Of a stretch of DNA of 64,000 nt, positions 6,018-22,741 are shown one piece after another. A program made the position numbers and the translations under genes. The stretch's first letter is position 1. Every line of letters begins with the position of its first letter. The notes beneath the pieces were generated by a model, which was given only the letters and a program-made list of their open reading frames with translations, was not told the DNA's origin and did no database searches. The DNA comes from Actinomyces oris (lineage in GTDB: Bacteria; Actinomycetota; Actinomycetes; Actinomycetales; Actinomycetaceae): assembly GCF_006546825.1 (NCBI RefSeq), contig NZ_VICC01000007.1, positions 1 through 64,000 of the forward strand, read 5' to 3'.

Positions 6018-7565
6018 TCAGGCCTCGTGCGACGGGGCGGATGCGGCTTCGTCCACCTCGTCGGCGAGGACCTCGTCGAGCAGGTCGCCCCGAATGCGTC
6101 CCCGCACCGCGTACCAGCCTGCCACCATCATGACGGCGACGATGGCGAATAGGGCCAGAGTCCAACGTCCGGCCGGGTCGGCCACGTTCGAGACGACGAC
6201 GATGGTGAAGAAGGCCAGGGCCGCGTAGTTGGACCAGGGGGCCCAGGGCATCCGGTAGGCCGGGCGCACCTCCTTGCCCTCCTGCACCCGCCGCAGGAAG
6301 GCGAGGTGGGTGACGAGGATGGCTCCCCAGGTCCCGGCGATGCCGATGCCGGCCAGGTTCATGACGATGTCGAAGGCGTCACCGGGCAGGTAGGCGTTGA
6401 GGACGACGCCGAGCAGCCCCAGGGCGGAGGTGATGATGATGCCCCCGGCAGGAACATGGTGCTTGTTGAGTCCGGCCGCCACCCGAGGGGCCTCGCCGGC
6501 CACCGCCATGGAGCGCAGGGTGCGTCCGGTGGCGTACAGGCCGGCGTTGAGGGAGGACAGCGCGGCGGTGAGGACCACGACCTGGATGATGTCGCCGGCA
6601 TAGGGCACACCGATCCCGGAGAAGAAGGTGACGAAGGGCGACTCGGTCTTGGAGTAGGACGTGTAGGGCAGGACCAGCGCCAGCAGCATGACCGAGCCGA
6701 CGTAGAAGACGAAGATGCGCAGAATCATCGAGTTGATCGCCTTGGGCAGGATTTTCTCCGCGTCCTTCGCCTCTCCGGCCGCCACGCCCACCATCTCCGT
6801 GCCACCGAAGGCGAAGACGACGCCGAGGGTCAGGGCGAAGACGATTGGGAATCCCTCGGGGAAGAACCCACCGTTTCCGAGGATGTTGTGAGCCCCCGCG
6901 GTGATTGCGCCTCCGTCGGGATCCGTTCCGGTGTGAAGCCCGAGAACAATGGCGACGATGGCCACCACCATGAAGGACACGATGGCGGCGACCTTGATGA
7001 GCGCGAACCAGAACTCGGCCTCACCGAACATCTTGACGTTGAGCATGTTGAGGATGAAGACCAGGACGAGCGCGATGAGCGCGAAGACCCACTGCGGGAC
7101 AACCTTCAGAGCCGTCCAGTAGTGGAGGTAGAGGGCCACGGCCGTGATGTCGGCCATGACGGTGACCGACCAGTCCAGGAAGAAGAACCAGCCGGTGATG
7201 TAGGCGCCCTTCTCGCCGAGGAACTCACGGGCGTAGGAGACGAATGCTCCGGAGGAGGGTCTGCGGATGGCGAGCTCGCCCAGAGCGCGCACCATGAGGA
7301 AGGCGAAGATTCCGCAGACGGCATAGGCGAACATCAGTCCCGCCCCGCCGTCCTTGAGTCGCCCGCCGGCACCCATGAAAAGACCCGTGCCGATGGAGCC
7401 GCCAATGGCGATCATCTGCAGGTGACGGTTCTTCAACGACTTGTTGTAGCCGGCGTCGCCGCGGTCCCGGATCTGGTCGTGCTGGGAAGCTCGGGAGGGT
7501 GACGGTGAAGCACCCGTCTGTGGTGATGGAGAGGTGGGGGAGTGGGTGGACGGAGACTCGCTCAT
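6018..7565 (-). CDS. ansP: Amino acid permease, probable L-asparagine permease
   Basis: 515 residues of the amino acid/polyamine/organocation superfamily. A Ser/Pro-rich cytoplasmic N-terminus (about 40 residues) leads into the first helix with IAIGGSIGTGLFMGAG, the unwound substrate-binding helix of this family, followed by RALGELAIRRPSSGAFVSYAREFLG, which closely resembles mycobacterial AnsP. Twelve membrane segments can be traced. It should import asparagine with protons; the call is strengthened by the adjacent asparaginase. The C-terminus is acidic and cytoplasmic. Confidence 0.85.
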   Translation of the reverse strand: MSESPSTHSPTSPSPQTGASPSPSRASQHDQIRDRGDAGYNKSLKNRHLQMIAIGGSIGTGLFMGAGGRLKDGGAGLMFAYAVCGIFAFLMVRALGELAIRRPSSGAFVSYAREFLGEKGAYITGWFFFLDWSVTVMADITAVALYLHYWTALKVVPQWVFALIALVLVFILNMLNVKMFGEAEFWFALIKVAAIVSFMVVAIVAIVLGLHTGTDPDGGAITAGAHNILGNGGFFPEGFPIVFALTLGVVFAFGGTEMVGVAAGEAKDAEKILPKAINSMILRIFVFYVGSVMLLALVLPYTSYSKTESPFVTFFSGIGVPYAGDIIQVVVLTAALSSLNAGLYATGRTLRSMAVAGEAPRVAAGLNKHHVPAGGIIITSALGLLGVVLNAYLPGDAFDIVMNLAGIGIAGTWGAILVTHLAFLRRVQEGKEVRPAYRMPWAPWSNYAALAFFTIVVVSNVADPAGRWTLALFAIVAVMMVAGWYAVRGRIRGDLLDEVLADEVDEAASAPSHEA

Positions 7566-19558: not shown

Positions 19559-21085
19559 ATGACGCTGCCGCCGGTACTGGCGACCACCTGGGTCGTCATC
19601 GAGTACCTCATTAAGATCGCTGCGCTGGGCACGGTTCCGGAGAACCGCCGCCCGTCGTCGTCGACCGCCTGGCTGCTGCTCATCTTCCTGCTGCCCCTCG
19701 TGGGGCTCCCGCTCTACCTGCTCATCGGCAGCCCGTGGGTCCACGGCACGCGTCGCCGCCAGCAGCACACCGTCAACGAGATCACCCTCGACTACACCCG
19801 CTCCATGCCCGACCTGCCCAAGGGCGCCCGGCCCTCGACCTACCTGGCCGGGGCACTGCGCATGAACCGCCGGCTCACCGGCCTGCCCTGCGTCAGCGGC
19901 GAAGTGGTGGCCGTCCACGCCGATCCCCGCAGCACCTACGAGGCCATGGCCCGAGCCATTGACTCCGCCACCGATCACATCCACGTCGAGTTCTACATCA
20001 TGAGCTGGGACGAGGTCACCGACGTCTTCTTCGCCGCCCTGGAGCGCGCGGTGGCCCGCGGCGTCACGGTGCGCCTCCTCCTGGACCACCTGGGCAGCCG
20101 CAAGTACCCCGGCTGGAAGCAGTTCTGCCAGCGCATGACCGACGCCGGCATCCGCTGGCGCCTCATGATGCCGCTGCTGCCGCTCAAGCGCCGCTGGCGC
20201 CGCCCGGACCTGCGCAACCACCGCAAGATCCTGGTCATCGACGGCGAGAAGGGCTTCATCGGCAGCCACAACGTCATCGACCCCTCCTACCGGACCCGGC
20301 GCAATGTGCGGGCCGGGCGCCGCTGGGAGGACCTGTCGGTGGAGGTCACCGGCGAGATCGTCCTGGAGGCCCAGGCCGTCTTCGCCATGGACTGGTTCTT
20401 CGAGGCCGGCGAGCAGCTCGAGGCCTTCGACCTGGCGCTGGGGACGCCGGCCGAGACCCTGCCGGAGATGGCGGGGCTGCCGGGAATCCCGGTGGGCACG
20501 CCGGCCCCCAGGCCCGGGCGTCCGGGCGCCGTCGTCAACGCCATGCAGCTCATTCCCTCCGGGCCGGGCTACCCCACTGAGCCGAACCTGCGGATGTTCC
20601 TGGCCCTCATCCATGGGGCCAAGCGGCGCGTGTCCATCACCAGCCCTTACTTCATTCCCGACGAGGCGCTGCTGGCGGCGATGACGTCGGCTGCTTACCG
20701 GGGGGTGGAGGTCGAGCTGTTCGTGGGCAAGGAGTCCGACCAGTTCATCGTCAGTCACGCCCAGCGCTCCTACTACTCGGCGCTGCTGGCAGCGGGGGTG
20801 CGGATCTACCTCTACCCCTCTCCGATCGTCCTGCATTCGAAGTACATGACGGTTGACGACGAGGTGGGGGTCATCGGCTCGTCCAACATGGACTTCCGCT
20901 CCTTCGCCCTCAACTACGAGGTCATGCTGCTGGCCTTCGGAGGGGACCTCGACGACCTGCTCCGCAACAACGACGCCGCCTACCGGGCCGCCTGCACCGA
21001 GCTGACTCCCGAGCTGTGGGCCACCGAGCCCTGGTACAACCGCTACGTGGACAACGTCTGCCGCCTCATGTCCGCCGTGCTGTAG
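19559..21085 (+). CDS. cls: Cardiolipin synthase, phospholipase D family
   Basis: 508 residues. It condenses two phosphatidylglycerols to cardiolipin at the membrane. Two N-terminal membrane helices (about 5-60, including the AWLLLIFLLPLVGLPLYLLIG segment) precede two catalytic HKD motifs: His221 in HRKILVIDGEKGFIGSHN and His426 in HSKYMTVDDEVGVIGSSN. Length matches the bacterial ClsA family. A CATGAT hexamer ends 6 bases before the ATG. The two micropeptide genes lie directly downstream on the same strand. Confidence 0.94.
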   Translation: MTLPPVLATTWVVIEYLIKIAALGTVPENRRPSSSTAWLLLIFLLPLVGLPLYLLIGSPWVHGTRRRQQHTVNEITLDYTRSMPDLPKGARPSTYLAGALRMNRRLTGLPCVSGEVVAVHADPRSTYEAMARAIDSATDHIHVEFYIMSWDEVTDVFFAALERAVARGVTVRLLLDHLGSRKYPGWKQFCQRMTDAGIRWRLMMPLLPLKRRWRRPDLRNHRKILVIDGEKGFIGSHNVIDPSYRTRRNVRAGRRWEDLSVEVTGEIVLEAQAVFAMDWFFEAGEQLEAFDLALGTPAETLPEMAGLPGIPVGTPAPRPGRPGAVVNAMQLIPSGPGYPTEPNLRMFLALIHGAKRRVSITSPYFIPDEALLAAMTSAAYRGVEVELFVGKESDQFIVSHAQRSYYSALLAAGVRIYLYPSPIVLHSKYMTVDDEVGVIGSSNMDFRSFALNYEVMLLAFGGDLDDLLRNNDAAYRAACTELTPELWATEPWYNRYVDNVCRLMSAVL

Positions 21086-21122: not shown

Positions 21123-21151
21123 GGGACAAAATGTGCAGGCGGTCATATCAT
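21123..21151 (+). promoter_or_regulatory. Promoter of first micropeptide gene
   Basis: GGGACA (21123-21128) and TATCAT (21146-21151) are 17 bases apart; the expected start of transcription is near 21158, giving a leader of about 45 bases. Confidence 0.5.
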
Positions 21152-21204
21152 GGTGCCTGAGAAGCCTTGGCATGGCGACCGGCTGTCGGGAAGGGAGGTG
21201 CGCC

Positions 21205-21336
21205 GTGGATATCCCGCAGTGGATGTGGGGCATGTTGCTCATGTGGGTCAGCATCACGCTTGGAACGGGGATCCGTCTGTACCGGACCAGACGCTCCTGG
21301 ATGCGCAAGTACCGGGAGGACCAGCCCCAGCGCTGA
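21205..21336 (+). CDS. 43-residue single-helix membrane micropeptide, copy 1
   Basis: A GTG start is preceded at 5-6 bases by AGGGAGGTG, close to a perfect ribosome site. The product begins VDIPQWMWGMLLMWVSI, a Trp/Met-rich hydrophobic helix of about 18 residues, then TLGTGIRLYRTRRSWMRKY, and ends REDQPQR, a strongly basic cytoplasmic tail. No family was recognized. A second copy follows 222 bases later with 20 of the last 21 residues identical. Possible roles are a small membrane-protein regulator or a toxin-like peptide; neither is supported directly. Coding is supported by the ribosome site and the conserved tail. Confidence 0.7.
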   Translation: MDIPQWMWGMLLMWVSITLGTGIRLYRTRRSWMRKYREDQPQR

Positions 21337-21391
21337 ACGATCCGGGCTGTCAGTGCGTTGTCTCATGGCTTCTGGGAGTTTCGGATGTCAT

Positions 21392-21407
21392 GACGTCTCA
21401 AGACGTC
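21392..21407. promoter_or_regulatory. Inverted repeat between the micropeptide genes
   Basis: GACGTC-TCAA-GACGTC is a 16-base repeat in which each half is itself a palindrome. It lies 150 bases upstream of copy 2 and may be an operator. No matching regulator is known here. Confidence 0.35.
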
Positions 21408-21558
21408 GGTTGGGTGGGTTTTCCAGAGGGAGAGGCGCTGTCTGTACTGCCGGTAGGGGCTGTTTCGGGCCTAAGCGAATTTGCGTTTGAGGTCGATGTA
21501 CCCCGGGGGTGTTTCGGTTACTGCAATAAGCGGTCCTTTCATCAGAGGAGGTGATTTT

Positions 21559-21690
21559 GTGGGCATTCCTCCGTGGGTGTGGGCGCTAGCAGTTGGCTGG
21601 AGTGGAGTTCTGGTGGGAACGGGGGTCCGTCTGTACCGGACCAGACGCTCCTGGATGCGCAAGTACCGGGATGACCAGCCCCAGCGCTGA
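21559..21690 (+). CDS. 43-residue single-helix membrane micropeptide, copy 2
   Basis: The GTG start is preceded by AGAGGAGGTGA, essentially the full complement of the 16S rRNA 3' end, at ideal spacing. The product begins VGIPPWVWALAVGWSGVL, a Trp-rich helix, continues VGTGVRLYRTRRSWMRKY and ends RDDQPQR. Over the last 75 bases only 2 differ from copy 1, while the helix halves differ much more, which indicates duplication followed by selection or conversion on the tail. It ends 28 bases before a strong terminator. Function unknown. Confidence 0.75.
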   Translation: MGIPPWVWALAVGWSGVLVGTGVRLYRTRRSWMRKYRDDQPQR

Positions 21691-21718: not shown

Positions 21719-21755
21719 GTCGGCCCCCGCACCGGGAGAGGGTGCGGGGGCCGAC
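21719..21755. terminator. Terminator between micropeptide and ABC permease genes
   Basis: A perfect 15-bp stem GTCGGCCCCCGCACC (21719-21733) with its complement (21741-21755) and a 7-base loop, between convergent genes. Confidence 0.8.
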
Positions 21756-21802: not shown

Positions 21803-22741
21803 TCAGGCGTCGCGGCGGGTGAAGACGACTGCGGCGATCACCATCGGGATGATGGCCCAGGCGGCGAAGACGGCGATGGCCTGCCAGTGCTGGAGGAAGG
21901 TGGCGGTACCGGCCTGTCCCCACTGGGTGGCCAGACTGAAGGGGTCGGAGACGGCGGTGGACAGGGTGTCCGGCAGGAGTCCCAGGACCTTGTTCGCCCA
22001 CTTCCAGTGGCCGGCCATCATCTGGAACGGAAGGGGGACGACGAACAGCACCGAGACCACCACGGTAATGGCGCCCGCCGTCGAGCGAGTGAGGTGACCG
22101 ACCCCCTGGGCCATGAGTGAGATGACTGCGAAGGACAAGCCGGTGCCCCAGAACAGCCCCAGGTAGTGGGCGTCGGTGAGAGAACCGGCGTGGCCCTTCA
22201 TGAACGGGGAGGAGGCGGCGTAGGCCAGCGCTACGCTGAGGACCCCGAGGACGAAGGAGAAGGCCGATCCGACGAGCGCCTTCGCCGCGAACAGACGCCC
22301 GCGGCGGGGAACGGCCATCATTGAGGAGCGGATCTGCCCCGAGGCGTACTCGCCGGTCATCACCAGGGCACCCAGGACGGCGACGACGATCATGCCCAGC
22401 ACCGAGCCCGCGGCGATCATGGTCTTGGCCTGGTCGGCCCGATCGGGGGAGCCGGCGTAGCCGATGGCCAGGCCCGCGCCGAACAGGACCGTGATGGCGA
22501 TCGTGATGACCGATGTGACCCAGGTGGAGGTCAGGGTGCGCAGCTTGATCCACTCGGCGCGCACCGCGCCGGCGAAGGACTGCCGTCCGGCTACGTGGGG
22601 CCGACTGGGGCGGTCGGCGGTCTCCAGGGTCCGATGCCGTCCGGTGCGGGATGCCCGGGAGACGGGGGTGGTTTTCTGGAGGGCCTCGAAACGGTTGACG
22701 CCTGTGGTCGGGCCGGCTGCGGCGTCGATAGTGGTGGTCAT
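21803..22741 (-). CDS. ABC-2 type transporter permease (orphan)
   Basis: 312 residues. After a polar N-terminus of about 50 residues, AGAVRAEWIKLRTLTSTWVTS marks the start typical of ABC-2 permeases, followed by six membrane helices, with GEYASGQIRSSMMAVPRRGRLFAAKA between the second and third as in this family. No ATP-binding partner gene is adjacent on either side, so it is an orphan or pairs with an ATPase elsewhere. Substrate unknown; relatives are lantibiotic-immunity or drug exporters. Confidence 0.82.
   Translation of the reverse strand: MTTTIDAAAGPTTGVNRFEALQKTTPVSRASRTGRHRTLETADRPSRPHVAGRQSFAGAVRAEWIKLRTLTSTWVTSVITIAITVLFGAGLAIGYAGSPDRADQAKTMIAAGSVLGMIVVAVLGALVMTGEYASGQIRSSMMAVPRRGRLFAAKALVGSAFSFVLGVLSVALAYAASSPFMKGHAGSLTDAHYLGLFWGTGLSFAVISLMAQGVGHLTRSTAGAITVVVSVLFVVPLPFQMMAGHWKWANKVLGLLPDTLSTAVSDPFSLATQWGQAGTATFLQHWQAIAVFAAWAIIPMVIAAVVFTRRDA

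What the first reader, a model, noticed from the sequence alone, without database searches (positions are those of the whole stretch)
21205..21690. Tandem 43-residue membrane micropeptide genes with near-perfect ribosome sites
Two very short genes each have a GTG start behind a near-ideal Shine-Dalgarno (AGGGAGGTG and AGAGGAGGTGA), the same 43-codon length, a Trp-rich hydrophobic helix that has diverged, and a basic tail RLYRTRRSWMRKYR-DQPQR that is nearly identical over 75 bases (2 differences). Divergent helix with a frozen tail suggests selection on the cytoplasmic part. I know of no family with this sequence. Small size, tandem copies and strong translation signals are reminiscent of toxin-like or transport-regulating peptides.
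Basis: partly seen in the sequence, partly recalled or inferred. Interest (0 to 1): 0.85.

Follow-up and report, generated by a model that had tools for sequence, protein, structure and literature searches.

The report
Orphan immunity micropeptides for lost bacteriocin
Two 43-residue membrane peptides in an Actinomyces genome are probably leftover shields against an antibacterial peptide whose gene has been deleted here but still sits next to the same kind of shield gene in related bacteria.

Summary
In detail: two 43-codon genes (21205-21336, 21559-21690) with strong ribosome sites share a 75-base 3' block with 2 differences. Intact copies are in 7 of 49 same-genus genomes; no curated family covers them.
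New: in relatives the peptide lies just downstream of a gene for a secreted precursor (signal-like start, propeptide, hydrophobic core of about 72 residues bounded by two invariant cysteines). Of 8 such precursor loci 7 have a peptide of this build next to them (broken in G014), in 3 genera of 2 families and unrelated contexts; G387 does not. The window lacks the precursor, but a decayed piece of its 3' end (CFGPKRICV-stop, 21461-21490) lies between the two genes; no shuffle of the gap matches the gene as well (0 of 300).
Best explanation (0.68): immunity micropeptides of an undescribed bacteriocin-like system, kept as orphans after toxin loss. The helix probably sets specificity. The near-identical tails look like recombination: gene1 is nearer its ortholog in the helix, nearer its neighbour in the tail. 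Killing and immunity are untested.

The parts
21205..21336 (+). Micropeptide gene 1: GTG start, 43 aa, hydrophobic helix plus basic tail
   Evidence: intact relatives in 7 of 49 same-genus genomes
21559..21690 (+). Micropeptide gene 2: GTG start, 43 aa, different helix, same tail
21193..21200 (+). Ribosome-binding site of gene 1 (GGGAGGTG)
21546..21555 (+). Ribosome-binding site of gene 2 (AGGAGGTGAT)
21461..21490 (+). Decayed 3' end of the lost precursor gene (reads CFGPKRICV-stop; G021 and G045 end SWPKRVCV-stop)
   Evidence: against the whole G021 and G045 genes the best 27-base match of the gene1-gene2 gap is 22 and 21, at the gene's 3' end; 0 of 300 shuffles reach it for either; the fixed 27-base gene ends match 20, 20 (G021, G045; 0 of 1000 shuffles) and 19 (G014; 1 of 1000) at 21470-21496. 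Position:
21262..21336 (+). Shared 75-base 3' block, copy 1
21616..21690 (+). Shared 75-base 3' block, copy 2 (2 differences)
21123..21151 (+). Promoter-like site before gene 1 (GGGACA, 17, TATCAT)
   Evidence: 1 found, 0.2 expected; consensus match only; none found before gene 2
19559..21085 (+). Neighbour upstream: cardiolipin synthase-like gene (PLDc domains); landmark of the variable site, not part of the system
21719..21755 (.). G+C-rich hairpin, kept at this site also where no micropeptide is present; probably the shared end of the convergent genes
   Evidence: read by eye; no T-run, so not called

Best explanation
The two genes encode immunity micropeptides of an undescribed bacteriocin-like system. 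In complete loci a precursor is exported through a signal peptide and then probably cut, so that a hydrophobic core of about 72 residues is released, closed by its two end cysteines. The core attacks the membrane of close relatives. The micropeptide sits in the producer's membrane, helix across and basic tail inside, and blocks its cognate core there; the helix sets which core it blocks. In the window the toxin gene has been lost except for its last codons; two shields of different specificity remain as orphans and exchange their tail by recombination. Shown: genes, homologs, gene order, the precursor scrap, the mosaic pattern. Inferred: export, cleavage, disulfide, killing, immunity, specificity, topology.
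For: Pairing: of 8 loci with a type-1 precursor, 7 (G013, G014, G021, G045, G150, G959, G428) have a 38-45 aa one-helix, basic-tailed reading frame next on the same strand, starting at most 150 nt after the precursor stop; in G014 that next copy is itself broken and two open copies follow; in G150 start and stop overlap, in G959 and G428 the gaps are 13 and 4 nt. The loci lie in 3 genera of 2 families; cls, hrpA and the ABC2 gene have no match near the G150, G959, G428 and G387 precursors. In control stretches such ORFs start in 0-2.3% of 250-nt windows on strands without the genes (the G959 peptide has tail charge +2 and would fail the +3 filter). Precursor: 11 invariant columns over 7 sequences, both core cysteines among them; G150 against G021 is 66% identical in the core, 47% over the whole. 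Toxin decay with shield retention: the G014 precursor has in-frame stops while two micropeptides stay open; G000, G001 and G018 have micropeptides and no precursor match; the window keeps a precursor scrap. Recombination: gene1-gene2 30 helix and 1 tail differences, gene1-ortholog 3 and 4 (Fisher p 0.002). Published parallels, passages read: CbnZ, 42 aa, one helix, is an immunity protein; esaG tandem immunity genes recombine through shared blocks; orphan immunity arrays by effector displacement.
Against: No activity data of any kind. No match to a known bacteriocin or immunity family. In G387 the type-1 precursor is followed by a second precursor and a convergent two-helix small frame, not by the micropeptide. 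The G150, G959 and G428 peptides are too short and diverged to prove homology to the Actinomyces ones; the profile search examined G150's family and did not list G150, and all three were found only by reading beside the precursor. The four Actinomyces loci are probably one inherited site and count once. In G428 only the 3' part of a precursor matched. The precursor model is weak (mean pLDDT 65.5) and gives no fold match. Processing or export genes were not searched for; none stood out among the reading frames listed.
Confidence: 0.68

Rival explanations
1. The micropeptide is a working partner of the precursor, not a shield: a second peptide of a two-part bacteriocin, or a helper for export or cutting.
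For: The same gene order would be seen; hydrophobic plus basic is also a bacteriocin-like composition; no other processing gene stood out.
Against: It shows no leader before the helix. It is present without an intact precursor in G000, G001, G018 and G014 and is doubled in three of them, which a helper of an absent peptide would not be.
Confidence: 0.12
2. The precursor is a secreted signal or surface peptide and the micropeptide its membrane sensor or regulator.
For: Signal peptide and propeptide also fit a pheromone; a response-regulator-like frame lies upstream in G150 (judged by eye from the first residues).
Against: A 72-residue hydrophobic core with two end cysteines is unlike known short pheromones (recalled); patchy presence and decay fit a weapon.
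Confidence: 0.08
3. The micropeptides are themselves membrane toxins of a type I toxin-antitoxin kind.
For: Size, single helix, basic tail, tandem copies, strong translation signals.
Against: Adjacency to a secreted precursor in 7 of 8 loci. No antisense RNA was looked for, so this is not excluded.
Confidence: 0.06
4. They regulate the neighbouring cardiolipin synthase or the ABC-2 permease.
For: Both flank the pair in the window.
Against: cls is in 49 of 49 same-genus genomes, intact micropeptides in 7; neither gene has a match near the G150, G959 and G428 pairs; G018 and G045 show no ABC2 match in the 1500 nt searched.
Confidence: 0.03
5. Non-coding repeated DNA.
For: 75-base repeat with 2 differences.
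Against: Frame, length and start signals kept across species; gene1 and gene2 helix changes to G001 mostly synonymous; pairing with the precursor.
Confidence: 0.01

Closest known systems
CbnZ, immunity protein of carnobacteriocin XY (PMC6957408, passages read)
   Same: 42 aa, one transmembrane helix, immunity shown by expression in sensitive strains
   Different: CbnZ has N inside and C outside by reporter fusion; here the basic tail suggests C inside. It serves a two-peptide bacteriocin of a lactic acid bacterium. Sequences were not compared here.
SdpC/SdpI and YitM/YitQ of Bacillus subtilis (PMC6818787, passages read)
   Same: Secreted precursor with signal sequence and C-terminal hydrophobic toxin part; membrane immunity proteins that differ between toxin variants; some strains keep only the immunity and regulator genes at one locus
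   Different: The SdpC family model finds none of the precursors here; cysteines at both ends of a longer core; SdpI is a larger membrane protein (recalled); SdpA/SdpB-like genes were not searched for
esaG, tipC and tsaI tandem immunity genes of type VII secretion toxins (PMC9484751, passages read)
   Same: Tandem, non-identical immunity copies with shared sequence blocks; recombination through them in esaG and tipC; toxin fragments inside the tsaI cluster
   Different: Larger proteins against type VII effectors; for the membrane ones (tsaI) little recombination was found
Actifensins, known Actinomyces bacteriocins (PMC6989792, passages read)
   Same: Actinomyces antibacterial peptides, several per strain, A. 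oris S64C included
   Different: 37-residue six-cysteine defensin-like peptides with a 32-residue leader and a multi-gene operon
Circular bacteriocins such as enterocin AS-48 (PMC4284732, abstract in listing; PMC8538875, passages)
   Same: AS-48 has a 70-residue helical chain closed end to end; small transmembrane immunity proteins are named for the class
   Different: Closed by a peptide bond; here two end cysteines would close the chain (inferred). No curated family linked the precursors to them

Membership tests
SdpC family (NCBIfam TIGR04032) | Score over the family cut-off | tested here: not met
   0 of 8 genomes over the cut-off and no listed match lies at a precursor; of 14 controls 4 ring, B. 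subtilis among them, 1 over the cut-off
SdpC family (NCBIfam TIGR04032) | Secreted precursor with hydrophobic C-terminal part | tested here: met
   By eye on translations; no signal-peptide program was run
Bacteriocin-immunity pair (general) | Immunity gene beside the bacteriocin gene, kept together across contexts | tested here: met
   7 of 8 type-1 loci (broken copy in G014); G387 is the exception
Bacteriocin-immunity pair (general) | Peptide kills; partner protects | not testable with these tools
   Needs bench work
Named families in Pfam and NCBIfam | Match over a curated cut-off | tested here: not met
   7 precursors. Gene1, gene2 and one G013 peptide. Only weak matches below cut-offs; the other micropeptides were scanned in PHROGs alone (12 members, best E 0.063)
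Recombining tandem immunity arrays (esaG type) | Mosaic similarity between tandem copies | tested here: met
   one clear case (G000 gene1); one genome per species only
Actifensins | Six cysteines in the mature peptide | tested here: not met
   two conserved cysteines in the core
Type I toxin-antitoxin peptide | Antisense RNA antitoxin | not tested
   No search for an antisense RNA and no Rfam search was made

The most novel reading that the evidence does not exclude
A modular immunity micropeptide: a swappable membrane helix that recognises one toxin core, joined to a constant basic tail that anchors it or recruits a common partner. The tail's DNA serves as the crossover point by which a 43-codon gene gains a new specificity, so that bacteria gather orphan shields against several variants of a disulfide-closed toxin family that has not been described.
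Probability: 0.3. Interest if true: 0.75.

Novelty: new variant of a known kind. Interest (0 to 1): 0.58.

Why it matters
If true, it adds an unrecorded family of bacteriocin-like peptides in Actinomyces and related actinobacteria, with immunity genes so short (38-45 codons) that gene finders can easily skip them. Because the shields look like two exchangeable modules, they offer a simple way to test how toxin specificity is read inside a membrane.

Tried and rejected
cls-linked regulator: rejected, since cls is in 49 of 49 genomes and the peptide intact in 7, and pairs elsewhere have no cls near. Phage or plasmid origin: tblastn of the precursor in plasmids gave no match; viral contigs gave nothing for the core and one 19-residue match for the peptide (L087), which lies in DNA coding for acidic repeats and looks like chance. 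The phages collection was not searched. SdpC membership: not met. Fold search of the precursor model: 3 matches, none with E at or below 0.001. PDB sequence search with the precursor profile: best E 0.011, to BamD over the N-terminal and propeptide part, taken as chance. Unusual silent conservation of the tail between genomes: not seen. A precursor scrap in other gaps: BLAST gave for the G001 gap a 19-base match on the opposite strand at the same E (0.024) as the window scrap; the G001 and G018 gaps reach only 17-18 of 27 against the window's 21-22, so I count only the window's.

Not pursued: 13 weak matches (E 5.4e-4 to 0.0098), 4 (G024, G114, G118, G210, E 0.003-0.007; L073 was fetched for G210 but not examined), and G1104 (E 4e-4). 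sample larger groups; one search held no known positive, so its empty answer shows little. Scraps behind cls were looked for in 30 of 49 genomes (loci capped). No Rfam search, no signal-peptide program, no search for processing genes.

Literature: 8 searches. None of the listings showed this precursor or peptide by title or abstract start; one search found 0 papers. This covers only the held open-access library. SdpI size, pheromone lengths and the idea that family f11 is Brevibacteriaceae are recalled.

Full report
What is there. They follow a cardiolipin synthase-like gene (19559-21085) and face an ABC-2 permease gene (21803-22741, minus) and a DEAD/DUF3418 helicase gene, called hrpA here. 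The own genome holds no further copy at E up to 10.

Who has it. In 49 same-genus genomes, intact micropeptides are in 7: G000, G001, G013, G014, G018, G021, G045. Two more keep a decayed tail right behind cls, G022 and G040; G020 shows a shorter 3' scrap, seen by eye. Two genomes could be named because contig lengths and ranges agree: G021 is Actinomyces oris S64C and G013 A. israelii DSM 43320. Tandem copies occur in G000, G001, G013 and G014; G014 has a third, broken copy. So the site behind cls gains and loses this material often: of the 12 genomes with the closest cls ends (91% or more), 6 have intact copies, 3 scraps, 3 nothing. In G013 the pair lies about 7 kb from cls, still beside hrpA.

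The partner. Reading the longer gaps of G021, G045 and G013 gave a second gene before the micropeptide: a 159-171 aa precursor with a signal-peptide-like start, a charged propeptide, and a hydrophobic core from one cysteine to another 70 residues on. G014 has the same gene broken by in-frame stops. As a query in the genus it rings in 4 of 49 genomes, all four with micropeptides right behind. In the family 9 of 213 genomes match; 5 strongly, the only one outside the genus being G150. There the context is different (no cls, hrpA or ABC2 match), yet a 38-residue peptide, MGSTWVYGAAIVLSSQVFSLCVRLYRRRRRKKKEDRAA, begins in the precursor's stop codon, and what looks by eye like a second, decayed pair follows. 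With the core alone 1 of 396 sampled genomes of the order rings (G387) and 0 of 396 of the phylum. With a profile that includes G387's own two precursors, 4 of 47 of its family ring, G387 by construction and G959, G965 and G428 as new ones, and 1 weak one of 394 of the class. In G959 a 45-residue and in G428 a 38-residue helix-plus-basic-tail peptide follow the precursor by 13 and 4 nt; in G428 only the 3' part of a precursor matched. G387 is the exception: two precursors in a row and a convergent two-helix frame, a frame like that seen again facing the second precursor type in G965. The count of 8 type-1 loci leaves out this second type (G387, G965), the decayed pair in G150 and the weak matches. 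Over 7 precursors two cysteines, three tryptophans, two prolines and a glycine of the core are among 11 invariant columns.

Chance. Frames of 36-46 codons with a hydrophobic stretch and a tail charge of +3 or more start in 0-2.3% of 250-nt windows on strands without the genes, in the window and eight loci. Two fresh contexts (G150, G428) meet this filter; G959 misses it by one charge; G387 does not meet it. The four Actinomyces loci count as one context.

The lost toxin. Between gene1 and gene2 the window reads CFGPKRICV-stop (21461-21490), against SWPKRVCV-stop at the end of the G021 and G045 precursors. BLAST alone gave E 0.024, no better than a stray match in the G001 gap. Two shuffle tests are clearer. 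Against the last 27 bases of the gene region 20 match for G021 and G045 (0 of 1000 shuffles) and 19 for G014 (1 of 1000). Against every 27-base window of the whole gene the best match is 22 (G021) and 21 (G045), both at the gene's 3' end, with 0 of 300 shuffles reaching either; the G001 and G018 gaps reach only 17-18. The scrap ends 68 nt before gene2.

How the copies evolve. Gene1 and gene2 differ at 30 of 69 helix bases and 1 of 63 tail bases; gene1 and its G001 ortholog differ at 3 and 4 (Fisher p 0.002). Among codons for the same residue in the three paralog pairs, 9 of 24 helix codons and 4 of 55 tail codons differ (counts, test, p 0.002; the pairs are not independent, and the G014 pair includes two codons before the likely start of one copy). 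That is a mosaic: the tail has been copied between neighbours, the helix not. Between genomes the tail's third positions diverge on the scale of cls, some pairs less, some more, so no special silent constraint is needed. The gene2 helix type recurs in G001, G014 and A. israelii, as expected if helix types are specificities kept by selection; the G014 one has 4 replaced helix codons.

Structure. Gene2 is predicted as one helix, residues 5-39 (mean pLDDT 82). The precursor model, from two sequences, is weak (mean 65.5), but puts short strand segments at residues 88-91 and 155-158, which hold the two cysteines. The disulfide is a prediction only.

Mechanism. Shown: homologous genes, order, overlap in G150, toxin decay with shield retention, mosaic tails. 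Inferred: secretion, cleavage to the core, killing of kin, protection by the micropeptide in the membrane, specificity in the helix, C-inside topology. The closest published working parallel for the shield is CbnZ, 42 residues and one helix (passages), with the opposite orientation; for the precursor, SdpC and YitM, whose strains also sometimes keep only the immunity side (passages); for the array, esaG and the Vibrio cholerae orphan immunity genes (passages). Membership in SdpC was tested and not met; no curated family covers the proteins scanned.

Verdict. Observation confirmed. Interpretation shifted from toxin-like peptides to orphan immunity peptides of an undescribed bacteriocin-like family, at 0.68.

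Noticed in passing
window 21803-22741 (-); L084 2887-4592 (-): An ABC-2 permease gene faces the micropeptides; no room for an ATPase gene between it and hrpA. It matches behind cls in G000, G001, G021, G022, G040 and G014, not in the 1500 nt searched of G018, G045, G020, G035, G030, G039. In G959 a permease-like and an ATPase-like frame face the precursor pair (by eye), without sequence match to the window's permease. Possibly a second immunity layer.
   Followed up: partly
L077 5983-6507 (+) and 6631-6849 (-); L080 1399-1719 (+) and 1831-2169 (-): A second precursor type with a shorter core, each time faced by a frame for a small two-helix protein with a basic end: perhaps another toxin-immunity pair of the same family.
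   Followed up: partly
L072 about 6333-6592 (+): A second, decayed precursor end and micropeptide-like stretch behind the G150 pair (by eye).
   Followed up: no
window 21719-21755: A strong G+C hairpin without T-run lies at the cls end in the 12 closest genomes read, also without micropeptides; probably a shared bidirectional terminator.
   Followed up: no
L035 2112-7311 (+): Three frames of 353-360 aa with similar starts behind a 554 aa frame near the G045 locus; not identified.
   Followed up: no
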